Assembly: GCA_947650365.1 (NCBI GenBank)
Contig: OX393549.1
Location: 12,406,073 to 12,470,072, forward strand
From: Chamaelirium japonicum
Lineage: Eukaryota; Streptophyta; Magnoliopsida; Liliales; Melanthiaceae
Reading direction: 5' to 3'
DNA: 64,000 nucleotides
Positions 3,331 to 64,000 of this stretch are shown piece by piece. The notes beneath the pieces are model-generated. The model was not told the DNA's origin and ran no database searches. It worked only from the letters and a program-made list of their open reading frames with translations. Position 1 is the stretch's first letter. Each line of letters begins with the position of its first letter. Both the position numbers and the translations under genes were made by a program.

Positions 3331-5500
<2,170 letters not shown>

Positions 5501-5608: not shown

Positions 5609-5690
5609 ATGGAGATGAGGAAGATCGCTTGCATCGTCCTTGTAGCCACCACATCGGCCACCGCCGAGGCCCCAACACCGACTCCGAAGA
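5609..5690 (+). pseudogene. Arabinogalactan-peptide gene, 5' part of the broken exon
   Basis: The frame starts MEMRKIACIVLVATTSA and continues AEAPTPTPK. That is a short hydrophobic signal peptide followed by the Ala/Thr-Pro motif that is hydroxylated and glycosylated in plant AG peptides, small GPI-anchored cell-surface proteoglycans. The CTACAG just before the ATG may be the end of a 5'-UTR intron. The CACTA element begins after codon PK, and the rest of the exon is at 23099-23188. The start resembles AG peptides of about 60 residues as I remember the family. Identification is by motif and length, not alignment. Confidence 0.6.
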
Positions 5691-5699
5691 CACTACAAG

Positions 5700-6478
5700 A
5701 ATTAGGGTCTTTACCGACGGACATTATTATCACCGTCGGTAATAATACACTTTTTACCGACGGGGAAAATAATATCCGTCGGTATTATAACTTCAATTTT
5801 TTTAATTTTCTTTGCATATTTATACCGACGGTATACATATATACCGTCGGTAATATACTTTATACCGACGGTTACATATAAACCGTCGGCAAAATGTCAT
5901 CGTCGTGATATTGTACCGACGGAAATTGTATTTCCGTCGGTATAACCAATGTTACCGACAGCCATAATATCTCCGTCGGCAATATACCGACGGTAATAAA
6001 ATGTCCGTCGGTAAAATTGTCCCGACGAAACTCAGTGTAAAAACCGAGCCTCTGGAAAAAAGTAGGAGGTTGAGTTCCGTCGTGCTATTTACCGACGGAC
6101 GTGAAAGTTCCGTCGGTATAACTAATTATACCGACGGTATTTATATGTCCGTCGGCACAATACCGACGGTAATTTAGTTTCCGTCGGTAAAATGTCCCGA
6201 CGAAACTCAGTGTGCCAAACCGAGCCTCTGGAAAAAATTGAACTTGTGTTTTCGTCGGGATTATACCGACGGAATTTATATATCCGTCGGTACAATACCG
6301 ACGGTAATTAAATTTCCGTCGGTAAAATGTCCCGACGAAACTCAGGGTGCCAAACCGAGCCTCTGGAAAAAATTGAGCTTGTTTTTTCGTCATGGAGTTT
6401 TACCGACGGATTGTTATTTACCGTCGGTAAAAAAATTAGTTTTACCGACGGAAGATAAAATGTCCGTCGGCAAAAACC
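5700..6478. repeat. CACTA left subterminal repeat region
   Basis: About twenty copies of ACCGACGG or its complement alternate in facing pairs 15-25 bases apart. By analogy with En/Spm, where TNPA binds short subterminal motifs in both orientations, these are candidate transposase-binding sites. A larger module (CCCGACGAAACTCAG, then CCGAGCCTCTGGAAAAA) recurs near 6012-6062, 6188-6236 and 6329-6377. Confidence 0.8.
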
Positions 6479-6482
6479 CTGT

Positions 6483-6489
6483 TATATAA
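6483..6489 (+). promoter_or_regulatory. Candidate TATA box of the CACTA transcription unit
   Basis: TATATAA lies directly after the last left subterminal repeat. It is followed by a CT-rich, GC-rich leader (6510-6930) typical of plant 5' UTRs. A start site near 6515 is inferred. If subterminal repeats bind a transposase-family protein, binding would sit right beside this promoter, as in En/Spm autoregulation. Confidence 0.5.
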
Positions 6490-8048
6490 CAAAACAGTCG
6501 AGGTCTTCTTTGATTCTTCTGATTCGATCTCTCCGGCGCGCGCCCCTCTCTCTCAATCTCTCTCTCTCTCTCACCGACCCGACCCCCCGGCGACCCCGTC
6601 CCCCTCCGGCAGCCCCGAGATCCCCTCCGGCCACCCATCCCCCTCCCGGCCACCCATCCCCCTCCCGACCTCCGCCCCTCCCCGGCCTCCCGGCCCTCTC
6701 TCTCTCTCCCCCGGCCTCCTCCCCCCCTCCCCGGCCTCCTTAGCCTTCCCTCTCTCTCTCTCTCTCTCTCTACTTCCTCCCCTCACCTGTCTCTCTCTCT
6801 CTCGATCCCTTGCACCTCCGGCCGGCCACCCATCACCTCACTTGCACCTCCGGCCACCCCTCCGCTTTCTCGCGCCACCGACTGCGACACCAGTGCTCCT
6901 CCTCCTTCTCGAGGCCTGCCGACCATCGCTGGTGAGCTCCTCCTCCCCCTTCGGTTAATGTCACTAGTAGGTTTCAGCCACCAATTGTATGCTGTCAAGT
7001 TAATCATGCTGGCGGAATAGGAAAAACCTTAAGGCTGAATAGCATTTCTCTAATTCTTATGGCTCCATTTGTTAAGGGCTAAATATTTTGATAAGTACTT
7101 TGTCAAGTATTTTAGAATTATGTAATAAATGTTTCATTTGGCTTGAAGTACGTATCTACCATGGTGGTAAATATTAGGGATTTTTTTGTTCAAAATATTA
7201 TTAATTTTTTAATTGAATAGTGGTTTATCAGAAGTATTTAACACACTAGTGCTCTAACAGCCATGTGACAGATTAATTAGTGCCGTAAAGTGGTGTCACG
7301 TTATTAGCCGAGTCGACTCGAAACTCGGCCGAGTCGACTCGACTCGGCTGAGTTTCGATCCGACTCGGTCCAAAACTCGAGTTTCGATCTGACTCGGTTG
7401 AGTTTCGATCCGACTCGAGTTTGTCGGGTTTTAGCCGAGTTGTCGTGTGTACTCGACTCATTAAGGTTTCGAGTCGAGTCGAGTTTTCGTGTTTTAAAAC
7501 ATTGAATTTTATCCTATCAAAACTGAATTGAATGGGGGAATGGGGGGCAAAATGTAGTTTTTAGACTAGGGTGAGCGTCGGTTTTGTCGGTCGGTTTCGG
7601 TGTGGGTTTTGTCGGTTATATTTTTTTCGGTTTACGAAAAATCAAAACCGAAATCAAAACCGAAACCGAAACCGAAATAGTCGGTTTTTGTCGGTTCGGT
7701 GTGATATGAGGTATGCTAAAGCCATAAATCTACTCGAGCGACAGAGAGAACCGTCAGACCCCAAGTGTTTACTTGATGAGGCTCCCTGACTTGTTGACTT
7801 ACTGTCGCATAACTTTGGTGCTATGCCTAGCATTCGAACTATCAGCAGTTCAAATGCTGGCCAGCAACCCTAGGTTTACTATGTGACTAGTCTACTCATC
7901 ATAATACACTCATCCATTAGGGATGTGGATGGCCTGTAGAAGTTTTGGTTCGGTGTTCCATACCCGGGAACCGAAACCGAAATTGTGCGGAGTCTTATAA
8001 CATTGTTTGAAATTATATGTCAGGTGTTGTATAGCCAGATAGACGAAG
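6490..8048 (+). other. CACTA 5' leader with probable intron
   Basis: The leader to about 6931 is C/T-rich, with a good splice donor CTG|GTGAGC at 6931/6932. Acceptors fit at ATGTCAG (ends 8023) or GTATAG (ends 8034), just before the TNP2 start, so an intron of about 1.1 kb in the 5' UTR is inferred. Inside it, 7305-7490 repeats GACTCG words and 7570-7700 repeats GGTTTCGG and AAACCGA. The latter begins TAGGGTGAGC like a hAT end, but no partner end was found. Confidence 0.5.
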
Positions 8049-11000
8049 ATGTCTTCGATCGATAAGAGTTGGATGCGTAATTCGAATCGCATGAGCCAAG
8101 AGTACAGAGAAGGAGTCAGGAAATTTCTGGATTTTGCATTTGAGCGTCTTGCACCGCTTGATGGAAAAATTGTGTGTCCCTGTATAGACTGCGGAAGGGT
8201 GATTAGGAAGGTTCGAGAGGAATGTGAGGTTGATCTGGTAATGCGTGGCATTGACGTTACCTATACCCGTTGGTTCTCGCACGGTGAGGAGCTAGATGCA
8301 GTCCCCATGGCAGCTCACGGTGAAACTTCAAACACAGTGATCGCTGATGATAATATTAATACAGACGATGACGATGACATGCAGGGTATGATACATGATT
8401 TGCAAGGTGGAATAGGCACGGAAACACCGTCAGGTGATCAGCCCAATATCGAAGCGGACAAGTTCTACAGATTGCTTAAAGATGCCGAACAACCTCTATA
8501 CCCGGGGTGTGAGAAGTTTTCAAAACTCTCTTTCACTGTAAAGCTTCTTCATTTGAAGTGCCTCAATGGTTGGAGTAATAAGTCATTTAATATGTTGGTA
8601 GAGTTGCTGAAAGAGGCTTTTCCTATGGGTGAGACAGTACCGAAATCATTCTACGAGGCGAAGAAGACAATTAAAGATCTCGGTCTGGGTTATGAGAAAA
8701 TTGATGCATGCGTGAACGATTGTATGTTGTACCGGAAAGAGTACGAACATGCGCGGTCATGCCACATATGCGGAGCAACGAGATATAAAGAGACGGATGC
8801 CGAGTCTAGTACCAGTCGAAGGAAGAAAAATGTATCTGCAAAGGTTCTCCTATACTTCCCGCTCAGGGACAGGCTTCAGAGGTTGTTTATGTCATCGAAG
8901 ACTGCTGAGCACATGAGGTGGCATGCACGAGAACGTACAGATGACGGGATTATGAGACATCCGGCCGACTCTCTGACGTGGAAAGATTTTGATCATACAT
9001 ATCCTGAATTCGCATGTGAAGTTCGCAACGTCAGGTTAGGGCTTGCTAGCGATGGCTTCAATCCCTTTGGGAATATGAGTGTGTCGTACAGCATTTGGCC
9101 AGTTGTCCTAGTTCCATACAATTTGCCTCCCTGGATGTGCTTAAAAAAGCCATACACAATGCTCTCCTTGCTCATTCCCGGACCCAGGTCGCCTGGTAAT
9201 GATATTGACGTTTACTTGCAGCCGTTGATTGAGGAGTTGAACGAGTTATGGGAAGTTGGGGCCGATACGTATGATGCCTCGTTGCGCCAGAATTTTCGGA
9301 TGCATGCGGCACTTCTATGGACCATCAACGATTTTCCTGCATATGCCAACTTATCCGGGTGGAGTACTAAAGGAAAATTGGCGTGCCCTACATGCAATAA
9401 GGAGACAGATTCATTACGATTGAAGAACGGAGGCAAGTTCTGTTATATGGGCCATCGAAGATTCCTTGTTGACGGCCATAAGTGGAGGCAGAACAAAAGA
9501 GCTTTCAACGGCAAGAAGGAACTTGCAAAGGCCCCGGAGCAGCTTTCGGGGGTAGAAGTCTTGTGCGAATTGGATCAGCTTGATGCCGTGGCACTTAGAA
9601 AAGGTAAAAAGAAGAGAACGCATGAAGATTCTACGCGTGAGCATAACTGGAAGAAGAAGAGTATTTTCTTTAAACTACCGTACTGGAGCAGCCTACTCTT
9701 GCGGCATAACTTAGATGTCATGCATATTGAGAAAAATGTGTGTGACAACATTATAGGAACACTGCTGAATCTCGACGGTAAGACGAAGGATAATCTTAAA
9801 TCTCGTCTCGATCTTAAGGAGTTGGGCATCCGAAAATCACTTCATCCCCAAGAGATTGGGGATAAGTATGTGTTGCCAGTTGCATGCTACACCATGAGCT
9901 CACAGCAAAAGGCAGCCTTATGTGCATTCCTACGGTCTGTGAAAACGCCAGACGGTTATTCTTCGAATATCGCACGATGCGTGCAAGAGAACGGCCGGAA
10001 GTTGTCTGGATTAAAGAGCCACGATTGTCATGTTCTTATGCAGCGATTGTTATCTCTTGCTATACGTGGGAATTTAACCGAAGAGGTGTCCGGTCCGTTA
10101 ATTGAGCTCAGCACTTTTTTCAGACAGTTGTGCTCGAAGGTACTTAGAGTGGACCAACTTGAACAGATGGAGAGGGATATTGCGCTCACATTGTGCAAGT
10201 TAGAGATGATATTTCCACCTTCATTCTTTGATGTCATGGTGCATTTGACCGTTCACTTGGCAAATGAGGCCAAACTCGGCGGCCCAGTTCATTACCGGTG
10301 GATGTATTTTATCGAGAGGTAATCGTCTCGTCTCATTCGCACAATGTATTTGATCGTTCTTGATATATTCATACAAATATTTTTTTCTCAAATTAGGTAC
10401 TTGCGAACATTGAAATCATATGTTCGTAATAAAAGTCGTCCGGAGGGATCAATTGCTGAAGGATACCTAGCAGAAGAATGTCTAACATTCTGCTCAAGAT
10501 ACCTACATGGTATAGACACGCGATTCAATCAACTTGAGCGGAACTATGACGGTGGTCCAATAGACTTCGATGGGGGTCTGTCTATATTTGCCGAAATGGG
10601 TAGACCTGTAGGAGGAGGCAAAACCCGTCGATTGTCTGTAGATGAGATTCAACAGGCACATATGTATGTGTTGCGCCAATGTGATGAAGTGTGGCCATTC
10701 ATTGAGTAAGCATTTTACGATCATTTACTCATTCTTTCAGTCCATTCATTAAGTATATGTGCTAATTATAATCTAATTCATAACCGGTAAAACAGGAAGC
10801 ATAAAGCCATCATTAATAATCGGGGTATTCGAAATGCTCCCCAAATTCATGATCGTGAATTCCCATCGTGGTTCGAGAAACACGTAAGTATTCACATCAT
10901 TACTGAATTTCATTGACATCCATTACCGAACAATAATTATGTGTTCATATCATGAATGTCGTGTGGTTATTATAGGCACAGGAGCTGCACGACAACCACG

Positions 11001-11650
11001 ATCCGCTGATGAATGAGGATCTCTGGCGCTTATCTTGTAGTCCTTTGCAAGACGCAATATCGTACGATGGTTATATCGTGAACGGTTATAGATTTCGGAC
11101 GAAAGATAGTGAAAAATCACGAAGAACCCAAAATAGTGGGGTTGTCGTCAACGGTGAGCAAGAAGAATTAGAAAATATCGACTTCTACGGCGTCCTCAAC
11201 GAGATTCTCGAGATTAAATTCCTTGGCCAAAATCGGATCGTATTATTCAAATGCGATTGGTATGATGTTAATAATCGCGGGACTGGTTATAATGTCGACA
11301 AATACGGTTTTATCAGCATCAACACTGCCAAGAGATTGAATACCCAATATGAAGATCCATTCATTCTTGCCTCTCAAGCGCAACAGATATTTTATGCACC
11401 GGATAATACCTCTCCAGGTTGGCAAATTGTAGTCAGGTCACCACCCAGAGATTTTTACGACATGGGAGACAAGGATGCGGGGGTCGTCGATGATGATTTG
11501 GATGCATACCAGAATGATGAGATAATCATTGTCGACGCAGTGCACGACGAAAATGAAGATGTCGACAATATAAACTGGACAGCGAATGCAGATCAAATAA
11601 TAGAAGAGGGAAGCGATGAGAGTGACAGAGATGAGACAGAAAATGACTAG
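8049..11650 (+). CDS. CACTA transposase, TNP2 (TNPD-like) family, 4 exons
   Basis: This is predicted to bind the element's ends and catalyse cut-and-paste transposition in the nucleus. Exons are 8049-10318, 10397-10705, 10796-10883 and 10976-11650, all with GT..AG introns that keep frame, giving about 1113 aa. The N-terminus (residues 1 to about 80, MSSIDKSWM with CPCIDCGR) matches the transposase-associated domain. An acidic linker follows near residues 95-120. The TNP2 core runs from about residue 140, with GLASDGFNPFG (D335), NLDVMHIEKNVC (D556) and NEAKLGGPVHYRW (E740) as likely DDE residues. It also has cysteine pairs CHICG and CPTC. The C-terminus is acidic. The first ATG suits the domain start. 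No internal stop or frameshift is seen, and array I starts about 120 bases after the stop. Confidence 0.92.
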
Positions 11651-11765
11651 ACCGTATGTAAATCAAATTGTTTCATATTTAAATCATACTGTTTCACCGA
11701 TTCATATGTAAATCATACCGTTTCATATGTAAATCATACCGTTTCACCGATTTACGATCCGACCG
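11651..11765 (+). repeat. Short tandem repeat bordering array I (left)
   Basis: About four copies of a 22-30 base unit containing CATATGTAAATCATAC and GTTTCA follow the TNP2 stop. The same unit reappears beyond the right end of array I (12875-13030), so it brackets the satellite. Confidence 0.6.
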
Positions 11766-12875
11766 ATTCACCGATTTAGAGTCTAAGAGTTGGAAAATCA
11801 TAAGTTAGCGTGTTTCGGATATGAAATAGGTTTCGATTCGATCGGATCGTCATCGGATCGGCATCCGATAATTCGAACTTGGAATTATTCCGTATTTCGG
11901 ACTTGCGAGCGGGTTCTAATTGGATATTTGACCAATTTACGCTCCGATTCACCGATTTAGAGTCTAAGTGTTGGAAAATCATAAGTTAGCGTGTTTCGGA
12001 TATAAAATAGGTTTGGATTCGATCGGATCGTCATCGGCTCGGCATCCGATAATTCGAACTTAGAATTATTCCGTATTTCGGACTTGCGAGCGGGTTCTAA
12101 TTGGATATTTGACCAATTTACGCTCCGATTCACCGATTTAGAGTCTAAGTGTTGGAAAATCATAAGTTAGCGTGTTTCGGATGTGAAATAGGTTTGGATT
12201 CGATCCGATCGTCATCGGATCGGCATCCGGTAATTCGAAGTTGGATTTATTCCGTATTTCGGACTTGCGAGCGGGTTCTAATTGGATATTTGACCAATTT
12301 ACGCTCCGATTCACCGGTTTAGAGTCTAAGTGTTGGAAAATCATAAGTTAGCGTGTTTCGGATATGAAATAGGTTTGGATTCGATCCGATCGTCATCGGA
12401 TCGGCATCCGGTAATTCGAAGTTGGAATTATTCCGTATTTCGGACTTGCGAGCGGGTTCTAATTGGATATTTGACCAATTTACGCTCCGATTCACCGGTT
12501 TAGAGTCTAAGTGTTGGAAAATCATAAGTTAGCGTGTTTCGGATATGAAATAGGTTTGGATTCGATCCGATCGTCATCGGATCGGCATCCGGTAATTCGA
12601 TGTTGGAATTATTCCGTATTTCGGACTTGCGAGCGGGTTCTAATTGGATATTTGACCAATTTACGCTCCGATTCACCGATTTAGAGTCTAAGTGTTGGAA
12701 AATCATAAGTTAGCGTGTTTCGGATATAAAATAGGTTTGGATTCGATCCGATCGTCATCGGATCGGCATCCGATAATTCAAACTTGGAATTATATTCCGT
12801 ATTTCGGACTTCCGAGCGGGTTCTAATTGGATATTTGACCACTTTACGATCCGATTAACCGATTTAGAGTCTAAC
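11766..12875 (-). repeat. 181-bp satellite array I, about 6 units
   Basis: Units repeat every 181 bases (phase points 11776, 11957, 12138, 12319, 12500, then a last less regular unit). Each contains GATCGGATCGTCATCGG or a close variant and ends near TTAGAGTCTAAG. Relative to array II the units are reverse-complemented. Units differ at several sites. The 68-codon frames across each unit are artefacts: 181 is one more than a multiple of three, so each closes in the next unit. Confidence 0.95.
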
Positions 12876-13031
12876 TGTTTCATATTGTTTCATATTGCGA
12901 GCGGGTTCATATTGTTTTATATTGTTTCATATGTAAATCATACTGTTTCATATATAAATCAAACTGTTTCATATTGTTTCATATGTAAATCTTAAATCTT
13001 ACTGTTTCATATGTAAATTAAATTGTTTCAG
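12876..13031 (+). repeat. Short tandem repeat bordering array I (right)
   Basis: Copies of TTTCATATGTAAATC and close variants fill the gap between array I and the second CACTA gene, mirroring 11651-11765. The stretch is AT-rich and may contain the second gene's leader. No clear TATA box was singled out. Confidence 0.55.
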
Positions 13032-14732
13032 ATGACATCACGGTCATATGTTCGTAGAGGCAGAGGCAGAGGCAGGGGTGGGGTAGCTCAGAGCGCTCCG
13101 GCTGCCACCCCAGGGTCCGAGGCTGAGCCGTCCGGATCTGGTAGTGCTGTTCCTCTCTCCACACCAGCTCCTGCTGTGGTCACAGCCTCCGGAGCTTCGA
13201 GCAGTGCTCAGCACTCGGCTGCAGCGTCTACGCCCACAGGTAATGTTTAGATCTAAAGTTTTATACATGTTGTAAATACTTCTTCAGTACTAATGTATAT
13301 TTTATTTGCAGGGTCGACCAGGTACGTAGGCGACCGGGGCGTGACGACGGCCCGGCGCTTGTCGGCCTTACGCGAGCCGCTGTCCCTACAGTGGAGCGGC
13401 CATACCTTTGTGGGCGAGCACGCTTCTGACGCCGCCACGTGGGTCGGCATGATAGTACGGGAGGAGAGGAATGCCCCGATTGTGGGGTTAAGGGGGTGGA
13501 AGAACATTGATGCATCCTATAAGGAGAGGATGTATCAGCAGTTTTTGGTACGTTAGTTTCATTAAAGCATTTTAGAATAATATCGTACTTCTTTATAATT
13601 TGATTTGATAAAATGACTTGTTTCTAAATTGATTTTACAGGAGAAATTTAAATGGGAGAACATGGAAACCGACACCCATCGGGAGGACTTGTGGAAGACG
13701 ATGGGTGAGCGGTACAGGGATTACCGTCACGAGCTCTACAAGCTCTACGGTTACTTGGTCGGCCAGCCGGCTGAGGAGGTACAGGCTGCGGCCGGGACGA
13801 GAGACGCGCCACCGCTACACATTCTACAGTTTTTGGTCGCTCACTGGGCCACCCCTAGCTTTCAGGTATAATTTTAATTTTATTGATTCGTACTTGTTTT
13901 AATGTTATACTAAAAATTTGTATTGATGTTTCAAAATTTAATCGATTGACACAGGTGAAATCTGCTGTAGGCAAGCAGAATAGAAGTGCCTCGACGACAC
14001 CTGCTCCAGTGAAGGGGAGGACCTCCATGCCCCAGCTTGCCCAGCAGCTGGTAAATGATACAAACATTGTTATTATTTAAAGCTCTATACATGTTATATT
14101 AACTCGTCTATTTATTTTATATGTCCAACAGACACAGTCCTTGGGCCACGAGCCTAATAGGATTGACCTTTTTGAGGCCTCTAGGAGGCGGCGTATCGAT
14201 GGGGCATTTCTGGACGACAGGGTTGCCTCGCAAGTGGTAAGTAATTAAATTACTGTTAATATATTCTTATACATATGCCATAAAATATCATTGAATATCA
14301 TTGGTTGTTTTTATATAGGAGAGGATGCGACTTATGGTGACCCCGTCGGGCGAGGCCGGCTCCTCCTCCAGCTCAGTATCTGTCGACTCAGCGATGGATA
14401 CTGTGCTGAGACCTGCCACGCACGGCCGTGTCCTCTGTACGGGCCTTGGAGTCACGCCCTCCTCCTACTTTGGACGAGAGGGTATGCGCTCGAGGGCACG
14501 GGACACCCAGACCGGTGCTATCACTCAGCTGCAGTCTGCGCTAGACGCGGAGCGAGAGCAGAGGCAGGCCCTCGAGCAGAGGATGGAGGCGGAGCGAGAG
14601 CAGAGGCAGGCCCTCGAGCAGAGGGTTGAGGCGGAGAAGAAGGCCCTCGATGAGGAAAGAGAAGCTCGCAGGGAACTGGAGCGTAAATTTAATGAATTCA
14701 TAAGCCGGTCTAGCGGTGGCTCATCCTCATGA
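13032..14732 (+). CDS. Second CACTA protein, plant Ptta/En/Spm transposase family, 6 exons
   Basis: Exons are 13032-13239, 13312-13547, 13641-13865, 13955-14050, 14132-14236 and 14319-14732. All introns are 70-95 bases with GT..AG ends and the frame is kept, giving about 427 aa. The first 70 residues are low-complexity (RGRGRGRGG, then Ser/Ala/Pro-rich). Residues about 71-225 carry the family region (TWVGMIVREERN, YKERMYQQF, HREDLWKTMGERYRDYR). The C-terminus is a charged coiled coil with two copies of EREQRQALEQR, then a Ser/Gly tail. The family is the usual partner of TNP2 in CACTA elements, and a TNPA-like DNA-binding role at the subterminal repeats is inferred. The in-frame ATG nine bases upstream (13023) is an alternative start. 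The gene is intact. Confidence 0.85.
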
Positions 14733-14737
14733 TCAGG

Positions 14738-17700
14738 TACTTACTAATCTTTATAATATTAGCAAAAAATATGAATCTTACTAATTTGAGTTTTGATCAT
14801 ATTATCACACTTATGATTTTCCAACACTTAGACTATAAATCGGTAAATCGAATCGTAAATGGTCACTCTCTCTCTCATGGTAATGATGTAGCCGGTAATG
14901 ATGTAGCCTCTGTTTTTCTTTTAAATACGGAATAATTCCAAGTTCGAATTACCGGATGCCGATCCGATGACGATCGGATCGAATCCAAACCTATTTCATA
15001 TCCGAAACACGCTAACTTATGATTTTCCAACACTTAGACTCTAAACCGGTGAATCGGAGCGTAAATTGGTCAAATATCCAATTAGAACCCGCTCGCAAGT
15101 CCGAAATACGGAATAAATCCAACTTCGAATTATCGGATGCCGATCCGATGACGATCGGATCGAATCCAAACCTATTTCATATCCGAAACACGCTAACTTA
15201 TGATTTTCCAACACTTAGACTCTAAACCGGTGAATCGGAGCGTAAATTGGTCAAATATCCAATTAGAACCCGCTCGCAAGTCCGAAATACGGAATAAATC
15301 CAACTTCGAATTATCGGATGCCGATCCGATGACGATCGGATCGAATCCAAACCTATTTCATATCCGAAACACGCTAACTTATGATTTTCCAACACTTAGA
15401 CTCTAAACCGGTAAATCGGAGCGTAAATTGGTCAAATATCCAATTAGAACCCGCTCGCAAGTCCGAAATACGGAATAATTCCAACTTCGAATTATCGGAT
15501 GCCGATCCGATGACGATCCGATCGAATCCAAACCTATTTTATATCCGAAACACGCTAACTTATGATTTTCCAACACTTAGACTCTAAATCGGTGAATCGG
15601 AGCGTAAATTGGTCAAATATCCAATTAGAACCCGCTCGCAAGTCCGAAATACGGAATAAATCCAACTTCGAATTATCGGATGCCGATCCGATGACGATCG
15701 GATCGAATCCAAACCTATTTCATATCCGAAACACGCTAACTTATGATTTTCCAACACTTAGACTCTAAATCGGTGAATCGGAGCGTAAATTGGTCAAATA
15801 TCCAATTAGAACCCGCTCGCAAGTCCGAAATACGGAATAATTCCAAGTTCGAATTATCGGATGCCGAGCCGATGACGATCCGATCGAATCCAAACCTATT
15901 TTATATCCGAAACACGCTAACTTATGATTTTCCAACACTTAGACTCTAAACCGGTGAATCGGAGCGTAAATTGGTCAAATATCCAATTAGAACCCGCTCG
16001 CAAGTCCGAAATACGGAATAATTCCAAGTTCGAATTATCGGATGCCGAGCCGATGACGATCCGATCGAATCCAAACCTATTTTATATCCGAAACACGCTA
16101 ACTTATGATTTTCCAACACTTAGACTCTAAATCGGTGAATCGGAGCGTAAATTGGTCAAATATCCAATTAGAACCCGCTCGCAAGTCCGAAATACGGAAT
16201 AATTCCAACTTCGAATTACCGGATGCCGATCCGATGACGATCGGATCGAATCCAAACCTATTTTATATCCGAAACACGCTAACTTATGATTTTCCAACAC
16301 TTAGACTCTAAATCGGTGAATCGGAGCGTAAATTGGTCAAATATCCAATTAGAACCCGCTCGCAAGTCCGAAATACGGAATAATTCCAAGTTCGAATTAC
16401 CGGATGCCGAGCCGATGACGATCGGATCGAATCCAAACCTATTTCATATCCGAAACACGCTAACTTATGATTTTCCAACACTTAGACTCTAAATCGGTGA
16501 ATCGGAGCGTAAATTGGTCAAATATCCAATTAGAACCCGCTCGCAAGTCCGAAATACGGAATAATTCCAAGTTCTAATTACCGGATGCCGAGCCGATGAC
16601 GATCGGATCGAATCCAAACCTATTTCATATCCGAAACACGCTAACTTATGATTTTCCAACACTTAGACTCTAAATCGGTGAATCGGAGCGTAAATTGGTC
16701 AAATATCCAATTAGAACCCGCTCGCAAGTCCGAAATACGGAATAATTCCAAGTTCGAATTACCGGATGCCGAGCCGATGACGATCGGATCGAATCCAAAC
16801 CTATTTCATATCCGAAACACGCTAACTTATGATTTTCCAACACTTAGACTCTAAATCGGTGAATCGGAGCGTAAATTGGTCAAATATCCAATTAGAACCC
16901 GCTCGCAAGTCCGAAATACGGAATAATTCCAAGTTCGAATTACCGGATGCCGAGCCGATGACGATCGGATCGAATCCAAACCTATTTCATATCCGAAACA
17001 CGCTAACTTATGATTTTCCAACACTTAGACTCTAAATCGGTGAATCGGAGCGTAAATTGGTCAAATATCCAATTAGAACCCGCTCGCAAGTCCGAAATAC
17101 GGAATAATTCCAAGTTCGAATTACCGGATGCCGAGTCGATGACGATCGGATCGAATCCAAACCTATTTCATATCCGAAACACGCTAACTTATGATTTTCC
17201 AACACTTAGACTCTAAATCGGTGAATCGGAGCGTAAATTGGTCAAATATCCAATTAGAACCCGCTCGCAAGTCCGAAATACGGAATAATTCCAAGTTCGA
17301 ATTACCGGATGCCGAGCCGATGACGATCGGATCGAATCCAAACCTATTTCATATCCGAAACACGCTAACTTATGATTTTCCAACACTTAGACTCTAAATC
17401 GGTGAATCGGAGCGTAAATTGGTCAAATATCCAATTAGAACCCGCTCGCAAGTCCGAAATACGGAATAATTCCAAGTTCGAATTACCGGATGCCGAGCCG
17501 ATGACGATCGGATCGAATCCAAACCTATTTCATATCCGAAACACGCTAACTTATGATTTTCCAACACTTAGACTCTAAATCGGTGAATCGGAGCGTAAAT
17601 TGGTCAAATATCCAATTAGAACCCGCTCGCAAGTCCGAAATACGGAATAATTCCAAGTTCGAATTACCGGATGCCGAGCCGATGACGATCGGATCGAATC

Positions 17701-20700
17701 CAAACCTATTTCATATCCGAAACACGCTAACTTATGATTTTCCAACACTTAGACTCTAAATCGGTGAATCGGAGCGTAAATTGGTCAAATATCCAATTAG
17801 AACCCGCTCGCAAGTCCGAAATACGGAATAATTCCAACTTCGAATTACCGGATGCCGATCCGATGACGATCGGATCGAATCCAAACCTATTTCATATCCG
17901 AAACACGCTAACTTATGATTTTCCAACACTTAGACTCTAAATCGGTGAATCGGAGCGTAAATTGGTCAAATATCCAATTAGAACCCGCTCGCAAGTCCGA
18001 AATACGGAATAATTCCAAGTTCGAATTACCGGATGCCGAGCCGATGACGATCGGATCGAATCCAAACCTATTTCATATCCGAAACACGCTAACTTATGAT
18101 TTTCCAACACTTAGACTCTAAATCGGTGAATCGGAGCGTAAATTGGTCAAATATCCAATTAGAACCCGCTCGCAAGTCCGAAATACGGAATAATTCCAAG
18201 TTCGAATTACCGGATGCCGAGCCGATGACGATCGGATCGAATCCAAACCTATTTCATATCCGAAACACGCTAACTTATGATTTTCCAACACTTAGACTCT
18301 AAATCGGTGAATCGGAGCGTAAATTGGTCAAATATCCAATTAGAACCCGCTCGCAAGTCCGAAATACGGAATAATTCCAAGTTCGAATTACCGGATGCCG
18401 AGCCGATGACGATCGGATCGAATCCAAACCTATTTCATATCCGAAACATGCTAACTTATGATTTTCCAACACTTAGACTCTAAATCGGTGAATCGGAGCG
18501 TAAATTGGTCAAATATCCAATTAGAACCCGCTCGCAAGTCCGAAATACGGAATAATTCCAAGTTCGAATTACCGGATGCCGAGCCGATGACGATCGGATC
18601 GAATCCAAACCTATTTCATATCCGAAACACGCTAACTTATGATTTTCCAACACTTAGACTCTAAATCGGTGAATCGGAGCGTAAATTGGTCAAATATCCA
18701 ATTAGAACCCGCTCGCAAGTCCGAAATACGGAATAATTCCAAGTTCGAATTACCGGATGCCGAGCCGATGACGATCGGATCGAATCCAAACCTATTTCAT
18801 ATCCGAAACACGCTAACTTATGATTTTCCAACACTTAGACTCTAAATCGGTGAATCGGAGCGTAAATTGGTCAAATATCCAATTAGAACCCGCTCGCAAG
18901 TCCGAAATACGGAATAATTCCAAGTTCGAATTACCGGATGCCGAGCCGATGACGATCGGATCGAATCCAAACCTATTTCATATCCGAAACACGCTAACTT
19001 ATGATTTTCCAACACTTAGACTCTAAATCGGTGAATCGGAGCGTAAATTGGTCAAATATCCAATTAGAACCCGCTCGCAAGTCCGAAATATGGAATAATT
19101 CCAAGTTCGAATTACCGGATGCCGAGCCGATGACGATCGGATCGAATCCAAACCTATTTCATATCCGAAACACGCTAACTTATGATTTTCCAACACTTAG
19201 ACTCTAAATCGGTGAATCGGAGCGTAAATTGGTCAAATATCCAATTAGAACCCGCTCGCAAGTCCGAAATACGGAATAATTCCAAGTTCGAATTACCGGA
19301 TGCCGAGCCGATGACGATCGGATCGAATCCAAACCTATTTCATATCCGAAACACGCTAACTTATGATTTTCCAACACTTAGACTCTAAATCGGTGAATCG
19401 GAGCGTAAATTGGTCAAATATCCAATTAGAACCCGCTCGCAAGTCCGAAATACGGAATAATTCCAAGTTCGAATTACCGGATGCCGAGCCGATGACGATC
19501 GGATCGAATCCAAACCTATTTCATATCCGAAACACGCTAACTTATGATTTTCCAACACTTAGACTCTAAATCGGTGAATCGGAGCGTAAATTGGTCAAAT
19601 ATCCAATTAGAACCCGCTCGCAAGTCCGAAATACGGAATAATTCCAAGTTCGAATTACCGGATGCCGAGCCGATGACGATCGGATCGAATCCAAACCTAT
19701 TTCATATCCGAAACACGCTAACTTATGATTTTCCAACACTTAGACTCTAAATCGGTGAATCGGAGCGTAAATTGGTCAAATATCCAATTAGAACCCGCTC
19801 GCAAGTCCGAAATACGGAATAATTCCAAGTTCGAATTACCGGATGCCGAGCCGATGACGATCGGATCGAATCCAAACCTATTTCATATCCGAAACACGCT
19901 AACTTATGATTTTCCAACACTTAGACTCTAAATCGGTGAATCGGAGCGTAAATTGGTCAAATATCCAATTAGAACCCGCTCGCAAGTCCGAAATACGGAA
20001 TAATTCCAAGTTCGAATTACCGGATGCCGAGCCGATGACGATCGGATCGAATCCAAACCTATTTCATATCCGAAACACGCTAACTTATGATTTTCCAACA
20101 CTTAGACTCTAAATCGGTGAATCGGAGCGTAAATTGGTCAAATATCCAATTAGAACCCGCTCGCAAGTCCGAAATACGGAATAATTCCAAGTTCGAATTA
20201 CCGGATGCCGAGCCGATGACGATCGGATCGAATCCAAACCTATTTCATATCCGAAACACGCTAACTTATGATTTTCCAACACTTAGACTCTAAATCGGTG
20301 AATCGGAGCGTAAATTGGTCAAATATCCAATTAGAACCCGCTCGCAAGTCCGAAATACGGAATAATTCCAAGTTCGAATTACCGGATGCCGAGCCGATGA
20401 CGATCGGATCGAATCCAAACCTATTTCATATCCGAAACACGCTAACTTATGATTTTCCAACACTTAGACTCTAAATCGGTGAATCGGAGCGTAAATTGGT
20501 CAAATATCCAATTAGAACCCGCTCGCAAGTCCGAAATACGGAATAATTCCAAGTTCGAATTACCGGATGCCGAGCCGATGACGATCGGATCGAATCCAAA
20601 CCTATTTCATATCCGAAACACGCTAACTTATGATTTTCCAACACTTAGACTCTAAATCGGTGAATCGGAGCGTAAATTGGTCAAATATCCAATTAGAACC

Positions 20701-22147
20701 CGCTCGCAAGTCCGAAATACGGAATAATTCCAAGTTCGAATTACCGGATGCCGAGCCGATGACGATCGGATCGAATCCAAACCTATTTCATATCCGAAAC
20801 ACGCTAACTTATGATTTTCCAACACTTAGACTCTAAATCGGTGAATCGGAGCGTAAATTGGTCAAATATCCAATTAGAACCCGCTCGCAAGTCCGAAATA
20901 CGGAATAATTCCAAGTTCGAATTACCGGATGCCGAGCCGATGACGATCGGATCGAATCCAAACCTATTTCATATCCGAAACACGCTAACTTATGATTTTC
21001 CAACACTTAGACTCTAAATCGGTGAATCGGAGCGTAAATTGGTCAAATATCCAATTAGAACCCGCTCGCAAGTCCGAAATACGGAATAATTCCAAGTTCG
21101 AATTACCGGATGCCGAGCCGATGACGATCGGATCGAATCCAAACCTATTTCATATCCGAAACACGCTAACTTATGATTTTCCAACACTTAGACTCTAAAT
21201 CGGTGAATCGGAGCGTAAATTGGTCAAATATCCAATTAGAACCCGCTCGCAAGTCCGAAATACGGAATAATTCCAAGTTCGAATTACCGGATGCCGAGCC
21301 GATGACGATCGGATCGAATCCAAACCTATTTCATATCCGAAACACGCTAACTTATGATTTTCCAACACTTAGACTCTAAATCGGTGAATCGGAGCGTAAA
21401 TTGGTCAAATATCCAATTAGAACCCGCTCGCAAGTCCGAAATACGGAATAATTCCAAGTTCGAATTACCGGATGCCGAGCCGATGACGATCGGATCGAAT
21501 CCAAACCTATTTCATATCCGAAACACGCTAACTTATGATTTTCCAACACTTAGACTCTAAATCGGTGAATCGGAGCGTAAATTGGTCAAATATCCAATTA
21601 GAACCCGCTCGTAAGTCCGAAATACGGAATAATTCCAACTTCGAATTACCGGATGCCGATCCGATGACGATCGGATCGAATCCAAACCTATTTCATATCC
21701 GAAACACGCTAACTTATGATTTTCCAACACTTAGACTCTAAATCGGTGAATCGGAGCGTAAATTGGTCAAATATCCAATTAGAACCCGCTCGCAAGTCCG
21801 AAATACGGAATAATTCCAAGTTCGAATTATCGAATGCCGAGCCGATGACGATCGGATCGAATCCAAACCTATTTCATATCCGAAACACGCTAACTTATGA
21901 TTTTCCAACACTTAGACTCTAAATCGGTGAATCGGAGCGTAAATTGGTCAAATATCCAATTAGAACCCGCTCGCAAGTCCGAAATACGGAATAATTCCAA
22001 GTTCAAATTACCGGATGCCGAGCCGATGACGATCGGATCGAATCCAAACCTATTTCAAAATCGAAACACGCTAACTTATCATTTTTTAACGCTTAGACTC
22101 AGTTATAGATATAAACCATTTTTTTAACAAATACATGTTAATTGCAG
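14738..22147 (+). other. Probable 7.4-kb 3'-UTR intron holding array II
   Basis: Six bases after the TGA stop stands CAG|GTACTT, a good donor. The first strong acceptor after the satellite is TTAATTGCAG ending at 22147. The acceptor and the exon after it are also present, reversed, in the second CACTA element (about 62049-62113), so they are conserved across diverged copies. I infer the whole array is spliced out of the 3' UTR. No transcript evidence is available. Confidence 0.5.
14810..22110 (+). repeat. 181-bp satellite array II, about 40 units
   Basis: Units recur with an exact 181-base step from about 15019 to 21897, with degraded units at both ends (14810-15018 and after 22060). Units from about 16290 to 21530 are almost identical, with only scattered single changes (for example near 16575, 17137, 18449, 19090). 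The outer units vary more. Two linked variants occur: AAGTTCG with GCCGAGC, and AACTTCG with GCCGATC. The orientation is opposite to array I. Each unit carries GATCCGAT (or GAGCCGAT), GACG, ATCGGATC, an inverted pair. Confidence 0.97.
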
Positions 22148-22310
22148 GAGCAGGGCGGCGTCAGGGGATCGATGAGAGCACCAGCGTTGGTGGTGGGCGG
22201 GCGTGGTTGAGATAGGGCGGCGTCCGGGGATCGATGAGAGCACCGGCGTTGGTGGCGGGCGGGGGTGGTTGAGATAGGACATGTATCATCTCTCAGTTCT
22301 GGATTGTGTA
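22148..22310 (+). other. Conserved terminal exon of the second CACTA gene (3' UTR)
   Basis: After the TTAATTGCAG acceptor comes a GC-rich 68-base sequence (GGCGGCGTC, GATGAGAGCACC, GTGGTTGAGATAG) present here as two tandem copies (about 22152-22283). The second CACTA element has one diverged copy in reverse. It contains no long frame and probably ends the transcript in the AT-rich DNA after 22300. Confidence 0.5.
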
Positions 22311-22545
22311 AATATTGTTTTGTAATATATGGTTATTTTTTCTTCTATCTATAATTGTCGGCCGGGAACTGTGGTAATATTTGATAATTTGCTGTAATTT
22401 TTTATCAATTTAGGTAATATTTTATAAATTGTGGTAATATTTGATAAATTGTGGTAATATTTGATAAATTGTGGTAATATATTGTGGTATTGAATCACAG
22501 GAATTAAATAACATTATTTATGTAAATTTATTAAAAAAAAAAAGA
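22311..22545. repeat. AT-rich tandem repeats in the CACTA 3' region
   Basis: Four or more copies of a roughly 20-base unit (GTGGTAATATTTGATAAATT) run from about 22368 to 22480. A related tract lies at 61840-61950 in the second element. No gene is seen. Confidence 0.7.
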
Positions 22546-23090
22546 TACTTATTACCGACGGAAATAAATTATTCCGTCGGTAATAATATTTTTATTTTTT
22601 TTAAATTATTAATGATTTGCCGACGGCATATAATATCCGTCGGTAATATATATAGTATTACCGACGGGTAATATATATATCCGTCGGTAATATATATAGT
22701 ATTACCGACGGTGATATTAATTTGGTCGGTAATATATATATTATTACCGACGGGTAATATATATATGTGTCGGTAATATATATAGTATTACCGACAGTAT
22801 AAACTATACTCGTCGGTAAAATGTTTATATATTACCGACGGATTCTTATAGTTCGTCGGCAATACTATATTATATTAGTTTTAAATTGATTAAATATTAC
22901 CGACGGCGTTCTAATTACCGTCGGTATTAATTATTAATACCGACGGTAATATTTGGTCCGTCGTATTGTTTTCCCCGACGCCTTTTTTCCCGACAGCCAG
23001 CGACGAAAATATCTTCCGTCGCTATATAATATTACCGACGAAATTTTAATATTACCGACGGATATTGTCCGTCGGTAATAACTGTTTTTT
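22546..23090. repeat. CACTA right subterminal repeat region
   Basis: Alternating ACCGACGG and CCGTCGGT copies, some mutated, fill about 540 bases up to the right terminus, mirroring the left side. They are candidate binding sites for the element's own proteins. Confidence 0.8.
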
Positions 23091-23098
23091 TTGTAGTG

Positions 23099-23188
23099 AG
23101 AGCAGTGCGCGCTTTCGCGGTCGCCCCGGCCATAAGAGTCCTGCTCGGCGCCTCGAGTCTCTCCTTCTTTGCCTTATACCTGCAGTAG
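23099..23188 (+). pseudogene. Arabinogalactan-peptide gene, 3' part of the broken exon
   Basis: Directly after the CACTA end, one frame reads VLLGASSLSFFALYLQ then a stop at 23186-23188. This resembles the hydrophobic GPI-anchor signal that ends AG peptides. It is not in the same frame as the 5' part once the target duplication is counted once. The exon therefore carries at least one small indel besides the insertion, either before or after it. The GC-rich composition matches the 5' part. A 3' UTR-like tract follows to about 23310. Confidence 0.55.
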
Positions 23189-30689: not shown

Positions 30690-31420
30690 GGGACAGCTAG
30701 CCAACGCCATGAACCGACGAGAGGAAGGAAAGCTTCCTAGCAAACCCATACAAAACCTAAGGAGTCAAAACCTAGCCGATGAAATCCACAAAAATATCTA
30801 TCACGAACAAGCTAAGGGTATCACAACTCTTAGAAGTGGCAAGATACTGGATAATTAAGTTGACAAATTAGAAAAAGAATCAGCTCCTAAACTCCCCACC
30901 GAAAAATCAATTGAAACTCAACCCAAACAAGCAACTCCAACTGCTGAACTGACTAGCAACCAATATACACCTCGCACTCCCTTCTCTCAAAGCCTAAAGA
31001 CACCGGCCATTGCTGAAAAGAAGCGAATCGTGATTGAGGACATCATGGACATCTTCTAATAAGTCAAAATAAACCTGCCTTTGTTAGAAACTATTAAGAA
31101 CAAATCCAAATCCACTATATCCAAGAAGATCTTCCTCACTGAGCAAGTAAGCTCGTTATTCATGAAAGACACACCCCCAAAATTGAAGGATCCGGGTACT
31201 CCGATCATCTCCTGTCTCATTGGAGACTCCATTAACTGAGCACTCATGGATTTTGGGGTAAGTGTCAATTTACTTCCCTACTCAATGTATGAAAAACTCG
31301 ACATATGTAAGCTGCAACCGACATAAGTTATATTTTAGTTCGTCGACAATTTCGTCAAGACACCCTAGGAATCATCGAGGATGTATTAATCAAAGTAGAT
31401 AAACTTTACTTCTCGGTGGA
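30690..31420 (+). pseudogene. Gag end / protease region of the Athila/Tat-like element (fossil)
   Basis: Protease-like text (SVNLLPYSMYEKL) is visible near 31260-31310. The region is broken and is interrupted at 31421 by the large LTR insertion. Confidence 0.6.
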
Positions 31421-33645: not shown

Positions 33646-34871
33646 ACTTGGTATCAGAGCCTAGGTAATAGGTCCTAGGAATTAGAATTATTAGCAAGAA
33701 GGACATTAGTAGGATAGTCACTTAACCTAGAGCATAAGTTAGGTTCATGTGAAGTAAATCTAGGTACACCTAGTCCTAGATGATTAAGACATTGATAACC
33801 TAAGACACTTAATCGCTAGAACAAGGTATGAACTTAAATTAAGAATCTTTTTTTTAAATATGTTATAATAACCTTCGATACGTAGGTCTGAGACAATAAA
33901 TTTTGAACGCTGAAAAGTTAGTCAACCCAGAAGATAATATAATACATCGAAATTAGAACGTATGATCACTTAAAGAGAATTAGAAACTAACTAGAATTAT
34001 AGGATGCCGCTTTGTAAAGATATGAAAATATATGAAGGTGTTATAAACCCTAGTAATAAATCAATTAGGGTAAGAAATCCCTAAGGAGTAATTTAATTTA
34101 AGATCCTATCTCCTAAGACCTCTTTTGAAAACACGTTACTACAGTATCTTAGTAGAAATAAGGATTATTGAAAGAAACTATTCTTAAGTCTTTTTGTAAA
34201 CTTAGTCGCATATCAAAGACTAAGACCTCTTTCCTGTGTAACCTGAAACCTATCCAAAGTATTAGAACCTTACCTAGGATAATCAATCTTGATGATAGTA
34301 GGTTAACTCAGGAATTAGATTTATATACGCAAATTACTCAGAAAAAATAAAAAAAAAAAAAAATAAAAAAATAAAGCATCCAACGCCTATAAGAACTAAG
34401 ATATTTCTCGAATGAAATCCATAGTCGAGAAGTCTAATGGACTCCAACCTCAAGCGATTAGTAACATACAAATGATTGACACAAATGAGTAAAGTTTTAA
34501 ATAAAGTCGAGTTGAATATAGAATACTAGTCACTTTCTAGTATTTAATTTTTACAAAAACATGGGGAGATCTGGGTTAAATCATTAGTGCAGAGAGAACT
34601 GATTTCAAGTACATAATCGACTTAAAAATTATAACATGTACTGTGATAATTAGGATTGATGTTAATCATCATTTCTCGAATTCAAGTTCAATGAAAAGGG
34701 CTACCTAGGAAAGGGCTGCCTGGGGTTAGGTGGAGCCGTTCCATGGGAAAAAGGGCTGCCAATTGCCAGTGTGGAGCCACCTAAGGTGGAGCCGCCTAGG
34801 ACTTTGACTTCGAGATCATGATAGTTTACCTCTACATCCTAAATGATCAGAGTCAAATAGTTAAAGTTTTT

Positions 34872-34878
<7 letters not shown>

Positions 34879-61357: not shown

Positions 61358-61369
61358 CACTAAAAAAAA

Positions 61370-61770
61370 ACAGTTTTTACCGACGAAAAATATCCGTCGG
61401 TAAAGTTACTTTTTCGTCGGTATAGATTTATAGCGACGAAATATATTTTCGTCGCTAATCTGTCGGGAAAAAAGGCATCGGGAAAAATAGGCGACGGACA
61501 AAAAATATCCGTCGGTATTAATAATTAATACTGACGGAATATATTTGTCCGTCGGTTATATAAAAATATTTAATTAAAAATATAATAGAGTATTACCGAT
61601 GGAAATTTAGCTTCCGTCGGTAATATATAAGGTTATTCCCGACGGTAAAGGTTATTACCATCGGTAATACTTTATATATTACCGACGGAAATATAATTTC
61701 TATCGGTAATATATAAATAATTAAAAAAAATAAAATATATTATTGTCGACGGAATTTATAGATTCCATCG
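61370..61770. repeat. Subterminal repeats of the second CACTA element
   Basis: Facing ACCGACGG-type motifs, several with substitutions (ACTGACGG, ACCGATGG, CCATCGGT), are more decayed than in the first element. Confidence 0.75.
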
Positions 61771-62149
61771 ATCAAAAACATGATTTTTTTAAAAAAATTA
61801 CATAAATAATATTATTTAATTTCTGTGATTTACAACAAAACCATAATATATTCAAATATTATCATAATTGACTAAATCAAAAATTACCATAATTTATCAA
61901 ATATTACCGCAAATTATCAAATATTACCAAATACTACCACAATACAAGACAATTATAGATAAGACCAAAAAATAACCACATATTTATTACAAAATTATTT
62001 TTACACAATCCAAAACTGAGGAAATATGTGTGCCCTATCTCAACCACGCCATGCTGCCCGGCACCAATGCTGGTGCTCTCATCCCCTGACGCCGCTCGGC
62101 TCCTGCAATTAACATGTATTTGTTAAAAAAATAGTTTATATCTATAATT

Positions 62150-64000
62150 GAGAGTCTAAGCGTTGAAAAATTATAAGTTAGCATGTTTCAGATTTAAAAT
62201 TGGTTTGGATTCGATCGGATCATTATCAGATCGACATCCGATAATTTGTACTTGGAATTATTTTGTTTTTTGGACTTGCGATCGAGTTCTAATTGGATAT
62301 TTTAATAATTTACACCCCGATTGACCAATTTAGAGTCTAAGCATTGAAAAATTATAAGTTAGCATGTTTTAGATTCAAAATAGGTTTGGATTCGATCGAA
62401 TATATCGTCATCGGATCGGCATCCGATAATTCGTAGTTAGAATTATTTCGTATTTCAGACTTGCGAGCGAGTTCTAATTGGAAATTTTCGCTCCGATTGG
62501 CCAATTTAGCGTCTAAACATTGAAAAATCATAACTAAGCGTGTTTCGGATTTGAAATAGGTTTAGAATCGATCGGATCGTCATCGGATCGGCATCCGATA
62601 ATTTGTAGTTAGAATTATTTCATATTTCAGACTTGTGAGCGAGTTCTAATTGGATATTTTAATAATTTATGCTCCGATTGACCAATTTAGAGTCTAAGCG
62701 TTGAAAAATCATAAGTTTGCGTGTTTCAGATTTGAAATAGGTTTGGATTCGATCGGATCATCATCGGATCAGCATCCAATAATTCGTAGTTAGAATTATT
62801 TCGTATTTCGGACTTGCGAGCGAGTTCTAAAAATATTTTAACAATTTACGCTCCGATTGACCAATTTAGAGTCTAAGCGTTGAAAAATCATAAGTTAGCA
62901 TGTTTTGAATTTGAAATAGATTTGGATTCGATCGAATCGTCATTTGATCAGCATCCGATAATTCGTAGTTAGAATTATTTCATATTTCAGACTTGCGATC
63001 GAGTTCTAATTGGATATTTTAACAATTTATGCTCAGATTGACCAATTTAGAGTCTAAGCGTTGAAAAATCATAAGTTAGCGTGTTTCGGATTTGAAATAG
63101 ATTTGGATTTGATCGGATCGTCATCGGATCGGTATCCGATAATTTGTACTTGTAATTATTTCGTATTTCGGATTTGCGAGCGAGTTCTAATTGGATATTT
63201 TAACAATTTATGCTCCGATTGACCAATTAAGAGTCTAAGCGTTATCCAAATCCTAAGTTAGCATGTTTCGGATTTGAAATAGATTTGGATTCGATCGGAT
63301 CGTCATCGGATCGATATCCAATAATTCGCACTTGGAATTATTTTCATATTTCGGACTTGAGAGCGAGTTCTAATTGGAAATTTTAACAATTTACGATCCG
63401 ATTGACCATTTTAGAGTCTAAGCGTTGAAAAATCATAAGTTAGCGTGTTTCGGATTCAAAATAGGTTTGGATTCGATCGGATCATCATCGGACCGGCATT
63501 CGATAAATCGTACTTAGAATTATTTCATATTTCGGACTTGCGAGCGAGTTCTAATTGGATATTTTAACAATTTATGCTCTGATTGATCGATTTAGAGTCT
63601 AAGCGTTGAAAAAGCATAAGTTAGCGTGTTTCAGATTTGAAATTGGTTTGGATTCGATCGGATCATCATCGGATCGGCATCCGATAATTCATACTTGGAA
63701 TTATTCCTTATTTCGGACTTGCGAGCGAGTTCTAATTGAAAATTTTAACAATTTACGATCCGATTGACCGATTTAGAGTCTAAGCGTTGAAAAATCATAA
63801 GTTAGCGTGTTTCGGATTTTAAATAGGTTTGGATTCGATCGGATCATCATCGAATCAGCATTCGATAATTTTTACTTGGAATTATTCCGTATTTTAGACT
63901 TGCGAGCGAGTTCTAACTGGAAATTTTAACAATTTACGATCAGATTGACCGATTTAGAGTCTAAGTGTTGGAAAATCATAAGTTAGCTTGTTTCAGATTT
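62150..64000 (-). repeat. Diverged 181-bp-type array of the second CACTA element
   Basis: About ten units of roughly 175-183 bases run off the window. They share GAGTCTAAGCGTTGAAAAAT, CATAAGTTAGCGTGTTTCGG and TTCGATCGGATC with the first element's units. They differ by fixed changes (GCGTTGAAAA for GTGTTGGAAA, GATTGACCAATTTAG for GATTCACCGATTTAG) and vary much more between units. Confidence 0.92.

What the first reader, a model, noticed from the sequence alone, without database searches (positions are those of the whole stretch)
11766..22110. CACTA transposon that carries one satellite in two opposed arrays around its second gene
The same 181-bp unit forms about 6 copies after the TNP2 stop and about 40 copies, reverse-complemented, after the stop of the second gene. 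The arrays occupy roughly half of a 17.4-kb element with intact genes. A read-through RNA could pair array I with part of array II, making a double-stranded arm of about 1.1 kb around a loop holding the second gene. That would be a natural siRNA source or a regulatory switch. Internal tandem repeats in plant CACTA elements are known; this opposed layout after each stop codon is the unusual part.
Basis: partly seen in the sequence, partly recalled or inferred. Interest (0 to 1): 0.85.

Follow-up and report, generated by a model that had tools for sequence, protein, structure and literature searches.

The report
CACTA transposon with opposed intronic satellites
A recently spread plant jumping gene carries one DNA repeat in two opposite-facing blocks around its second gene; relatives show that one block was added lately as an inverted copy of the other, which makes a natural test of whether such layouts affect gene expression.

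Summary
A 17,408-bp CACTA element (5691-23098, TSD AGA) with open TNP2 and Transposase_24 genes carries a 181-bp unit 6.2 times (+) after TNP2 and 39.7 times (reverse complement) after gene 2: 47.7% of its length. In the same 1.52-Gb genome, 20 of 20 fetched copies with identical TNP2 exon 4 share the layout; the array-I edges occur exactly 376 and 314 times. Relatives show the history. Array I is absent from 14 of 14 TNP2-bearing relatives with an intact spacer (exon 4 92.3-98.5% identical; five were picked for that spacer) and present in 24 of 24 at 99.1% or more. Its bearers form one clade (99/94) and its consensus unit differs from the young array II at 1 of 181 sites, so it is a recent inverted copy of the element's own satellite. 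Both arrays lie in predicted introns that start 3-4 bases after each stop codon, as in an En/Spm-like shared transcript. RNA pairing is possible (97.3% over six units), but no RNA data were available, and a long-maintained hairpin role is not supported.

The parts
5691..23098 (+). Complete CACTA element, 17,408 bp; flanked by 3-bp TSD AGA (5688-5690 and 23099-23101)
5691..6500 (+). 5' terminal and subterminal region; CCGACGG motif 13 times (+) and 14 times (-)
8049..11650 (+). TNP2 transposase gene; predicted exons 8049-10318, 10397-10705, 10796-10883, 10976-11650; 1113 aa; PF13963, PF02992, PF13960, PF13952
11648..11659 (+). TNP2 stop (11648-11650), three bases, then donor-like GTATGT (11654-11659); GT kept in 37 of 38 informative copies
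11651..11762 (+). Left half of the 21-bp minisatellite spacer that is continuous in relatives without array I
11763..12879 (+). Array I, 6.2 copies of the 181-bp unit; recent inverted gain
12880..13031 (+). Right half of the 21-bp spacer, with a stray unit fragment GCGAGCGGGTTC; ends in acceptor-like TTTCAG directly before the gene-2 ATG
13032..14732 (+). Gene 2 (TNPA-like position), 427 aa, PF03004 Transposase_24; predicted exons 13032-13239, 13312-13547, 13641-13865, 13955-14050, 14132-14236, 14319-14732
14733..14738 (+). TCAG|GT donor-like site, GT at 14737, four bases after the gene-2 stop (predicted start of 3'-UTR intron)
14923..22100 (-). Array II, 39.7 copies of the same unit, reverse complement; ancestral array
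22138..22151 (+). TTAATTGCAG|GAGC acceptor-like site after array II (predicted end of 3'-UTR intron)
22341..23098 (+). 3' subterminal and terminal region; CCGACGG 9 times (+) and 5 times (-)
61358..64000 (-). 3' part of an older, inverted, TNP2-less relative that continues past the window to about 70504; has array II (26.2 units) and no array I

Best explanation
This is an autonomous-looking member of a recently spread plant CACTA family. Its ancestral form was TNP2, then a 21-bp-repeat spacer, then gene 2, then array II in a long 3'-UTR intron. One templated rearrangement (template switching or gap repair using the element's own array II, on the opposite strand) put units of the satellite in inverse orientation into the spacer between the two genes and made array I. 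Both arrays then grew and shrank by unequal exchange or slippage while the element multiplied. By analogy with En/Spm, the two genes are probably one transcription unit whose introns begin right after each stop codon, so each array is removed by splicing. The opposed layout is therefore tolerated intronic cargo first. Pairing of the two arrays in the precursor RNA is possible but secondary. Shown: layout, recurrence, lateness and single-clade distribution of array I, likeness of the two arrays. Inferred: intron status, the rearrangement mechanism, and any effect on RNA.
For: 20 of 20 fetched copies (of 39 others listed with exon 4 identical to the window) have the full opposed layout. Of 26 such copies listed on C1-C3, 25 have the exact right edge of array I 822-3849 bp downstream on the same strand; one (C1:109580481) has no exact edge and was not fetched. 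Array I is absent from 14 of 14 TNP2-bearing relatives with an intact spacer (exon 4 92.3-98.5%; 9 picked by exon or gene-2 similarity, 5 picked because they hold the array-I-less spacer) and present in 24 of 24 at 99.1% or more; L069, spacer deleted, was set aside. Array-I bearers form one clade, support 99/94, in a 13-row exon-4 tree. The left edge is shared in 20 of 21 young copies (L016 differs) and the right edge in 18 of 19 scored (L024 differs), across two subfamilies; stray unit fragments lie in the spacer. Consensus of 130 array-I units differs at 1 of 181 sites from 545 array-II units and at 12 from 25 units of the older element; six polymorphic sites are shared. Array II has the same orientation in array-I-less relatives: the older element and 3 of 3 short pieces. 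Motifs fit introns: GT after the TNP2 stop in 37 of 38 copies; TTTCAG|ATG in 21 of 21 young and 12 of 13 older; donor after the gene-2 stop in 21 of 21 young and 9 of 11 older; acceptor after array II in 16 of 16 young that reach it and 10 of 11 older. En/Spm and Tam1 make a TNP2-type and a spliced TNPA-type mRNA, and Tgmt* spliced transcripts like them (PMC2613891, passages).
Against: No RNA evidence supports any of the splice sites. At about 9% divergence most two-base splice motifs would survive by chance, so their retention in old copies is weak evidence of constraint. The age ordering rests on one exon; the 675-bp tree has 5 of 10 inner branches open and leaves out L071-L076. The rearrangement mechanism is read from edges alone. 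Sampling was by similarity to chosen queries, and scored candidates were capped at about 40 per search.
Confidence: 0.72

Rival explanations
1. Hairpin siRNA source or regulatory switch. A read-through RNA folds array I on part of array II; Dicer makes small RNAs that methylate the arrays or tune the element.
For: The arrays are 97.0-97.7% complementary over six units in 33 registers, and a natural pre-mRNA would span both if the genes share a transcript. Inverted copies of a transposon can silence it in plants: Mu killer holds a partial inverted duplication of mudrA (PMC3440606, abstract start in search listing). The older array shows C-to-T type decay: transitions at CpG 13.0%, CHG 6.1%, CHH 10.0% against 1.1% at A/T, as expected if methylated.
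Against: That decay is in an element that lacks array I, so array methylation does not need the hairpin. Array 21-mers hardly match the rest of the element (6 of 1081 on each strand), so the genes are not direct targets. Array-I bearers are numerous and young (376 and 314 exact edges). In wheat, about half of CACTA small RNAs match the outer tenths of the elements (PMC2996936, passages).
Confidence: 0.15
2. Two independent captures of a host satellite in opposite orientation.
For: Captured 171-bp satellite DNA near the 3' end is reported for quinoa CACTA elements (PMC8978399, passages).
Against: Array I matches the element's own young array II at 180 of 181 consensus sites and shares six polymorphisms, while the older array differs at 12-13. 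A close array-I-less relative has array-II units only 92-93% like the window's array-I unit (L078), so the donor was probably the young array II. Free satellite arrays were not searched for systematically.
Confidence: 0.05
3. The arrays are extra binding sites for the element's DNA-binding protein, as proposed for tandem repeats in Galileo.
For: Tandem repeats in Galileo ends hold transposase binding sites (cited in PMC4079207, passages).
Against: The subterminal motif CCGACGG occurs 0 times in either array on either strand, against 41 times in the two ends. The arrays are internal.
Confidence: 0.05
4. Assembly artefact: array I was misplaced or inverted from array II.
For: Tandem arrays are error-prone in assemblies (general knowledge).
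Against: The same order recurs in 20 of 20 fetched copies and the edges hundreds of times with 0 in the reversed control; array-I-less copies show the clean empty site.
Confidence: 0.02

Closest known systems
CACTA (En/Spm) elements with En/Spm, Tam1 and Tgmt* type gene organisation (PMC2613891, passages)
   Same: CACTA ends, 3-bp TSD, subterminal repeats, TNP2 gene followed by a second gene; donor-like sites right after the stop codons fit a shared, alternatively spliced transcript
   Different: Half of the length is two opposed arrays of one 181-bp unit; splicing is predicted only
Chenopodium quinoa CACTA element with internal 171-bp satellite (PMC8978399, passages)
   Same: 16.5-kb CACTA with a 5.55-kb array of 32.5 monomers near the 3' end; very like array II in place and size
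   Different: One array is described; unit sequences were not compared here; no inverted second array between the genes is mentioned in the passages read
Foldback elements such as Tetris of Drosophila virilis (PMC4079207, passages)
   Same: The same tandem repeat in opposite orientation on both sides of a middle segment
   Different: There the repeats lie in the terminal inverted repeats of a non-autonomous element; here they are internal and asymmetric, and the ends are separate
Mu killer (PMC3440606, abstract start in listing)
   Same: Inverted duplication of transposon sequence that could give a long hairpin RNA
   Different: Mu killer duplicates coding and terminal sequence and silences the element; here only non-coding satellite is duplicated and the bearers are numerous

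Membership tests
CACTA (En/Spm) superfamily | Ends CACTA...TAGTG with 3-bp target duplication | tested here: met
   CACTACAAGAA...TTTGTAGTG, TSD AGA
CACTA (En/Spm) superfamily | TNP2 transposase | tested here: met
   PF02992 E 3.7e-102, plus PF13963, PF13960, PF13952
CACTA (En/Spm) superfamily | Subterminal short repeats in both orientations | tested here: met
   CCGACGG 27 times at the 5' end and 14 at the 3' end, both strands
CACTA (En/Spm) superfamily | Second, TNPA-position gene | tested here: met
   PF03004 E 3.2e-15 in a 427-aa protein
CACTA (En/Spm) superfamily | Transposition | not testable with these tools
   Exon 4 (675 bp) identical at 40 of 40 scored places implies recent movement; no assay
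En/Spm-type shared transcription unit | TNPA-type mRNA made by splicing past TNP2 | tested here: inconclusive
   Splice-like sites in the right places; no RNA
Foldback transposon | Tandem repeats lie in the terminal inverted repeats | tested here: not met
   Arrays start 6072 bp and end 998 bp from the ends; ends are CACTA type
siRNA-producing hairpin locus (Mu killer type) | Hairpin RNA processed to small RNAs | not testable with these tools
   No RNA data; complementarity only

The most novel reading that the evidence does not exclude
The inverted arrays, one in each predicted intron flanking gene 2 and 152 and 186 bp from its outer splice sites, pair in the precursor RNA and loop out the whole gene-2 coding block. 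That would change the TNP2 to TNPA-like ratio, or make a circular RNA holding the complete gene-2 reading frame, and helped the array-I lineage to spread.
Probability: 0.08. Interest if true: 0.85.

Novelty: new variant of a known kind. Interest (0 to 1): 0.5.

Why it matters
The family holds a natural experiment inside one genome: hundreds of exact array-I edges (376 and 314) and 173 exact array-I-less spacers, some in copies whose exon 4 differs by under 2%. Small-RNA, methylation and cDNA data from this plant could show directly what an inverted intronic satellite does to a transposon's expression and silencing. It also suggests how a transposon can invert and amplify its own satellite. Even if the arrays are inert, the graded series documents the birth of a second, opposed array.

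Tried and rejected
A search of the public protein collection with gene 2 scored 7993 candidates and found none at E <= 0.001, so no outside relatives were found; TNP2 was not tried there. Transposase-binding role: motif absent from arrays. Array as coding sequence: no stop-to-stop frame of 100 aa or more lies in either array. Transfer between the two arrays after their origin: one variant (column 26 G) is practically confined to subfamily A and occurs in both its arrays (array I 33%, array II 5%; subfamily B at most about 1%); suggestive only. Array-I units found exactly in the same copy's array II: 0-3 of 3-7 distinct units, and in other copies' array II 0-4, so exact sharing is not stronger within a copy. 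Literature: the searches listed no description of opposed internal arrays in a CACTA element in titles or abstract starts; apart from the passages cited, full texts were not read, and the library lacks most subscription journals. Circular RNA: a review says that complementary flanking introns seem rare around plant circRNAs, while noting an enrichment of transposon pairs in maize (PMC7248317, passages); in mammals reverse-complementary repeats promote back-splicing (PMC8516420, abstract).
Full report
What is there. The window holds a complete CACTA element at 5691-23098 (17,408 bp; TSD AGA). TNP2 occupies 8049-11650 in four predicted exons and gives 1113 aa with PF13963, PF02992, PF13960 and PF13952. 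Gene 2 occupies 13032-14732 in six predicted exons and gives 427 aa with PF03004 (Transposase_24, E 3.2e-15). Array I is 11763-12879 (181 bp x 6.2) and array II 14923-22100 (181 bp x 39.7, reverse complement). Together they are 47.7% of the element.

Not a one-off. The window lies in a 1.52-Gb genome held as G000. TNP2 exon 4 (675 bp) was found at 100% identity at all 40 places that were scored out of 1308 candidates, one of them the window itself. In 20 of 20, array I (3-7 units, same strand as TNP2), gene 2 and array II (reverse) follow in that order; array II spans about 13-34 units, five of them cut by the end of the fetched piece, against 39.7 in the window. Eight 3.2-kb loci found by an array-I unit also show array I; two overlap the copies just named, so they add six copies, chosen by array I itself. 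For 25 of the 26 exon-4-identical copies listed on contigs C1-C3, the exact right edge of array I lies 822-3849 bp downstream on the same strand; one has no exact edge and was not fetched. With about 1250 bp for six units, 3849 bp would mean roughly 20 units if the extra length is array. Genome-wide exact matches: right edge 376, left edge 314, array-I-less spacer 173, each with 0 for the reversed control. These count sites, not intact elements, and exact matching undercounts older copies.

History. An older relative starts at 61358 and runs out of the window in inverse orientation to about 70504. It lacks TNP2 and array I but has array II with 26.2 units at 88%. I then took twelve 2.4-kb pieces upstream of gene 2, from 12 of the 39 other copies listed at 89-92% identity to it: 0 of 12 has array I. 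Four carry TNP2, whose stop is followed directly by about 250 bp of 21-bp repeats and then gene 2; eight show no TNP2 in the piece. Of eight closer relatives, five (exon 4 96.6-98.2%) lack array I, two at 99.1-99.6% have it, and L069 has lost the spacer and is not counted. Of six more, five were picked because they hold the array-I-less spacer, so only their exon-4 identity (97.3-98.5%) is news; the sixth, at 99.7%, has array I. In total 14 of 14 informative TNP2-bearing copies at 92.3-98.5% lack array I and 24 of 24 at 99.1% or more have it. In a 13-row exon-4 tree (identical rows dropped, L071-L076 not included), array-I bearers are one clade (99/94). Array II is present in the same orientation in array-I-less copies: the older element, and 3 of 3 short pieces; by position, five older copies agree, two of which (L033, L037) were seen to lack array I. 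The left edge of array I is the same, within one base, in 20 of 21 young copies (L016 differs), and the right edge in 18 of 19 scored (L024 differs; L012 and L025 not scored), across two subfamilies that differ by 63 bp of spacer. Short stray fragments of the unit sit in the spacer beside it. This fits one recent gain, and the patchy edges suggest templated insertion.

Source of array I. In 700 aligned monomers (130 array I and 545 array II from 21 young copies, 25 from the older element; incomplete edge monomers dropped), array I and II consensus differ at 1 of 181 sites, and each differs from the older element at 12-13. Six common polymorphisms are shared. Mean distances: I-I 2.83%, I-II 2.52%, II-II 1.73%, I-old 12.7%. 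A near relative without array I (L068, exon 4 98.1%) has array-II units 92-93% like the window's array-I unit (L078). So array I most likely came from the young lineage's own array II.

Why after each stop codon. A donor-like GTATGT begins after three bases behind the TNP2 stop (GT in 37 of 38 informative copies). TTTCAG stands directly before the gene-2 ATG (21 of 21 young; 12 of 13 older). TCAG|GT follows the gene-2 stop (21 of 21 young, 9 of 11 older; the older element kept GT but lost the stop) and TTAATTGCAG|G follows array II (16 of 16 young that reach it, 10 of 11 older). En/Spm and Tam1 make a large TNP2-type transcript and a spliced TNPA-type mRNA from distant exons, and soybean Tgmt* has spliced transcripts like them (PMC2613891, passages). 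If this element does the same, both arrays are spliced out, and exon junctions just after the stop codons would not be expected to trigger mRNA decay (general knowledge). This is inference: no RNA was available, and retention in old copies is close to what 9% divergence gives anyway.

Does the layout do anything? Six array-I units would pair with array II at 97.0-97.7% identity. The duplex shares almost no 21-mers with the rest of the element (6 of 1081 on each strand), so it would target the arrays. The older array shows strong C/G transition decay (CpG 13.0%, CHG 6.1%, CHH 10.0%, A/T 1.1%), which fits methylation without array I. Gene 2 is open in 18 of 19 young copies scored, window included; L015 has an early stop, and two copies were not scored because of point changes beside the start. 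The layout is thus compatible with a working element. A hairpin, siRNA or splicing effect is possible, unproven and, because array I is new, not a long-kept function.

Known kinds. Internal satellite arrays in CACTA elements are published (quinoa, 171 bp x 32.5 near the 3' end, PMC8978399, passages). Opposed tandem repeats around a middle segment are published for foldback elements, where they lie in the ends (Tetris, PMC4079207, passages). I saw no report of opposed internal arrays in a CACTA element in the searches, which cover open-licence papers only and were seen as listings except where passages are cited. I rate it a new variant of a known kind.

Noticed in passing
L031, L033, L035, L037, L038, L040, L041, L042 and the element from window 61358 to about 70504 (L029): Copies of the same CACTA family without TNP2 in the part seen carry telomere-like TTTAGGG repeats (13-45 exact copies) before gene 2 in 9 of 9; the 4 older TNP2-bearing pieces and the young element have none.
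   Followed up: partly
window 31400-46400: Blocks of about 0.16-0.93 kb recur in direct and inverted orientation at 93-100% identity, with 40-bp and GGT-rich tandem arrays; it looks like duplicated or nested inverted-repeat elements.
   Followed up: no
window 62146-64000 and L029: The old array II shows transitions at CpG and CHH sites about ten times those at A/T, while the young unit has 16 CpG where 8 are expected: methylation decay after insertion is likely.
   Followed up: partly
window 4426-4544 and 49182-49259: Long perfect CT and TA microsatellites.
   Followed up: no
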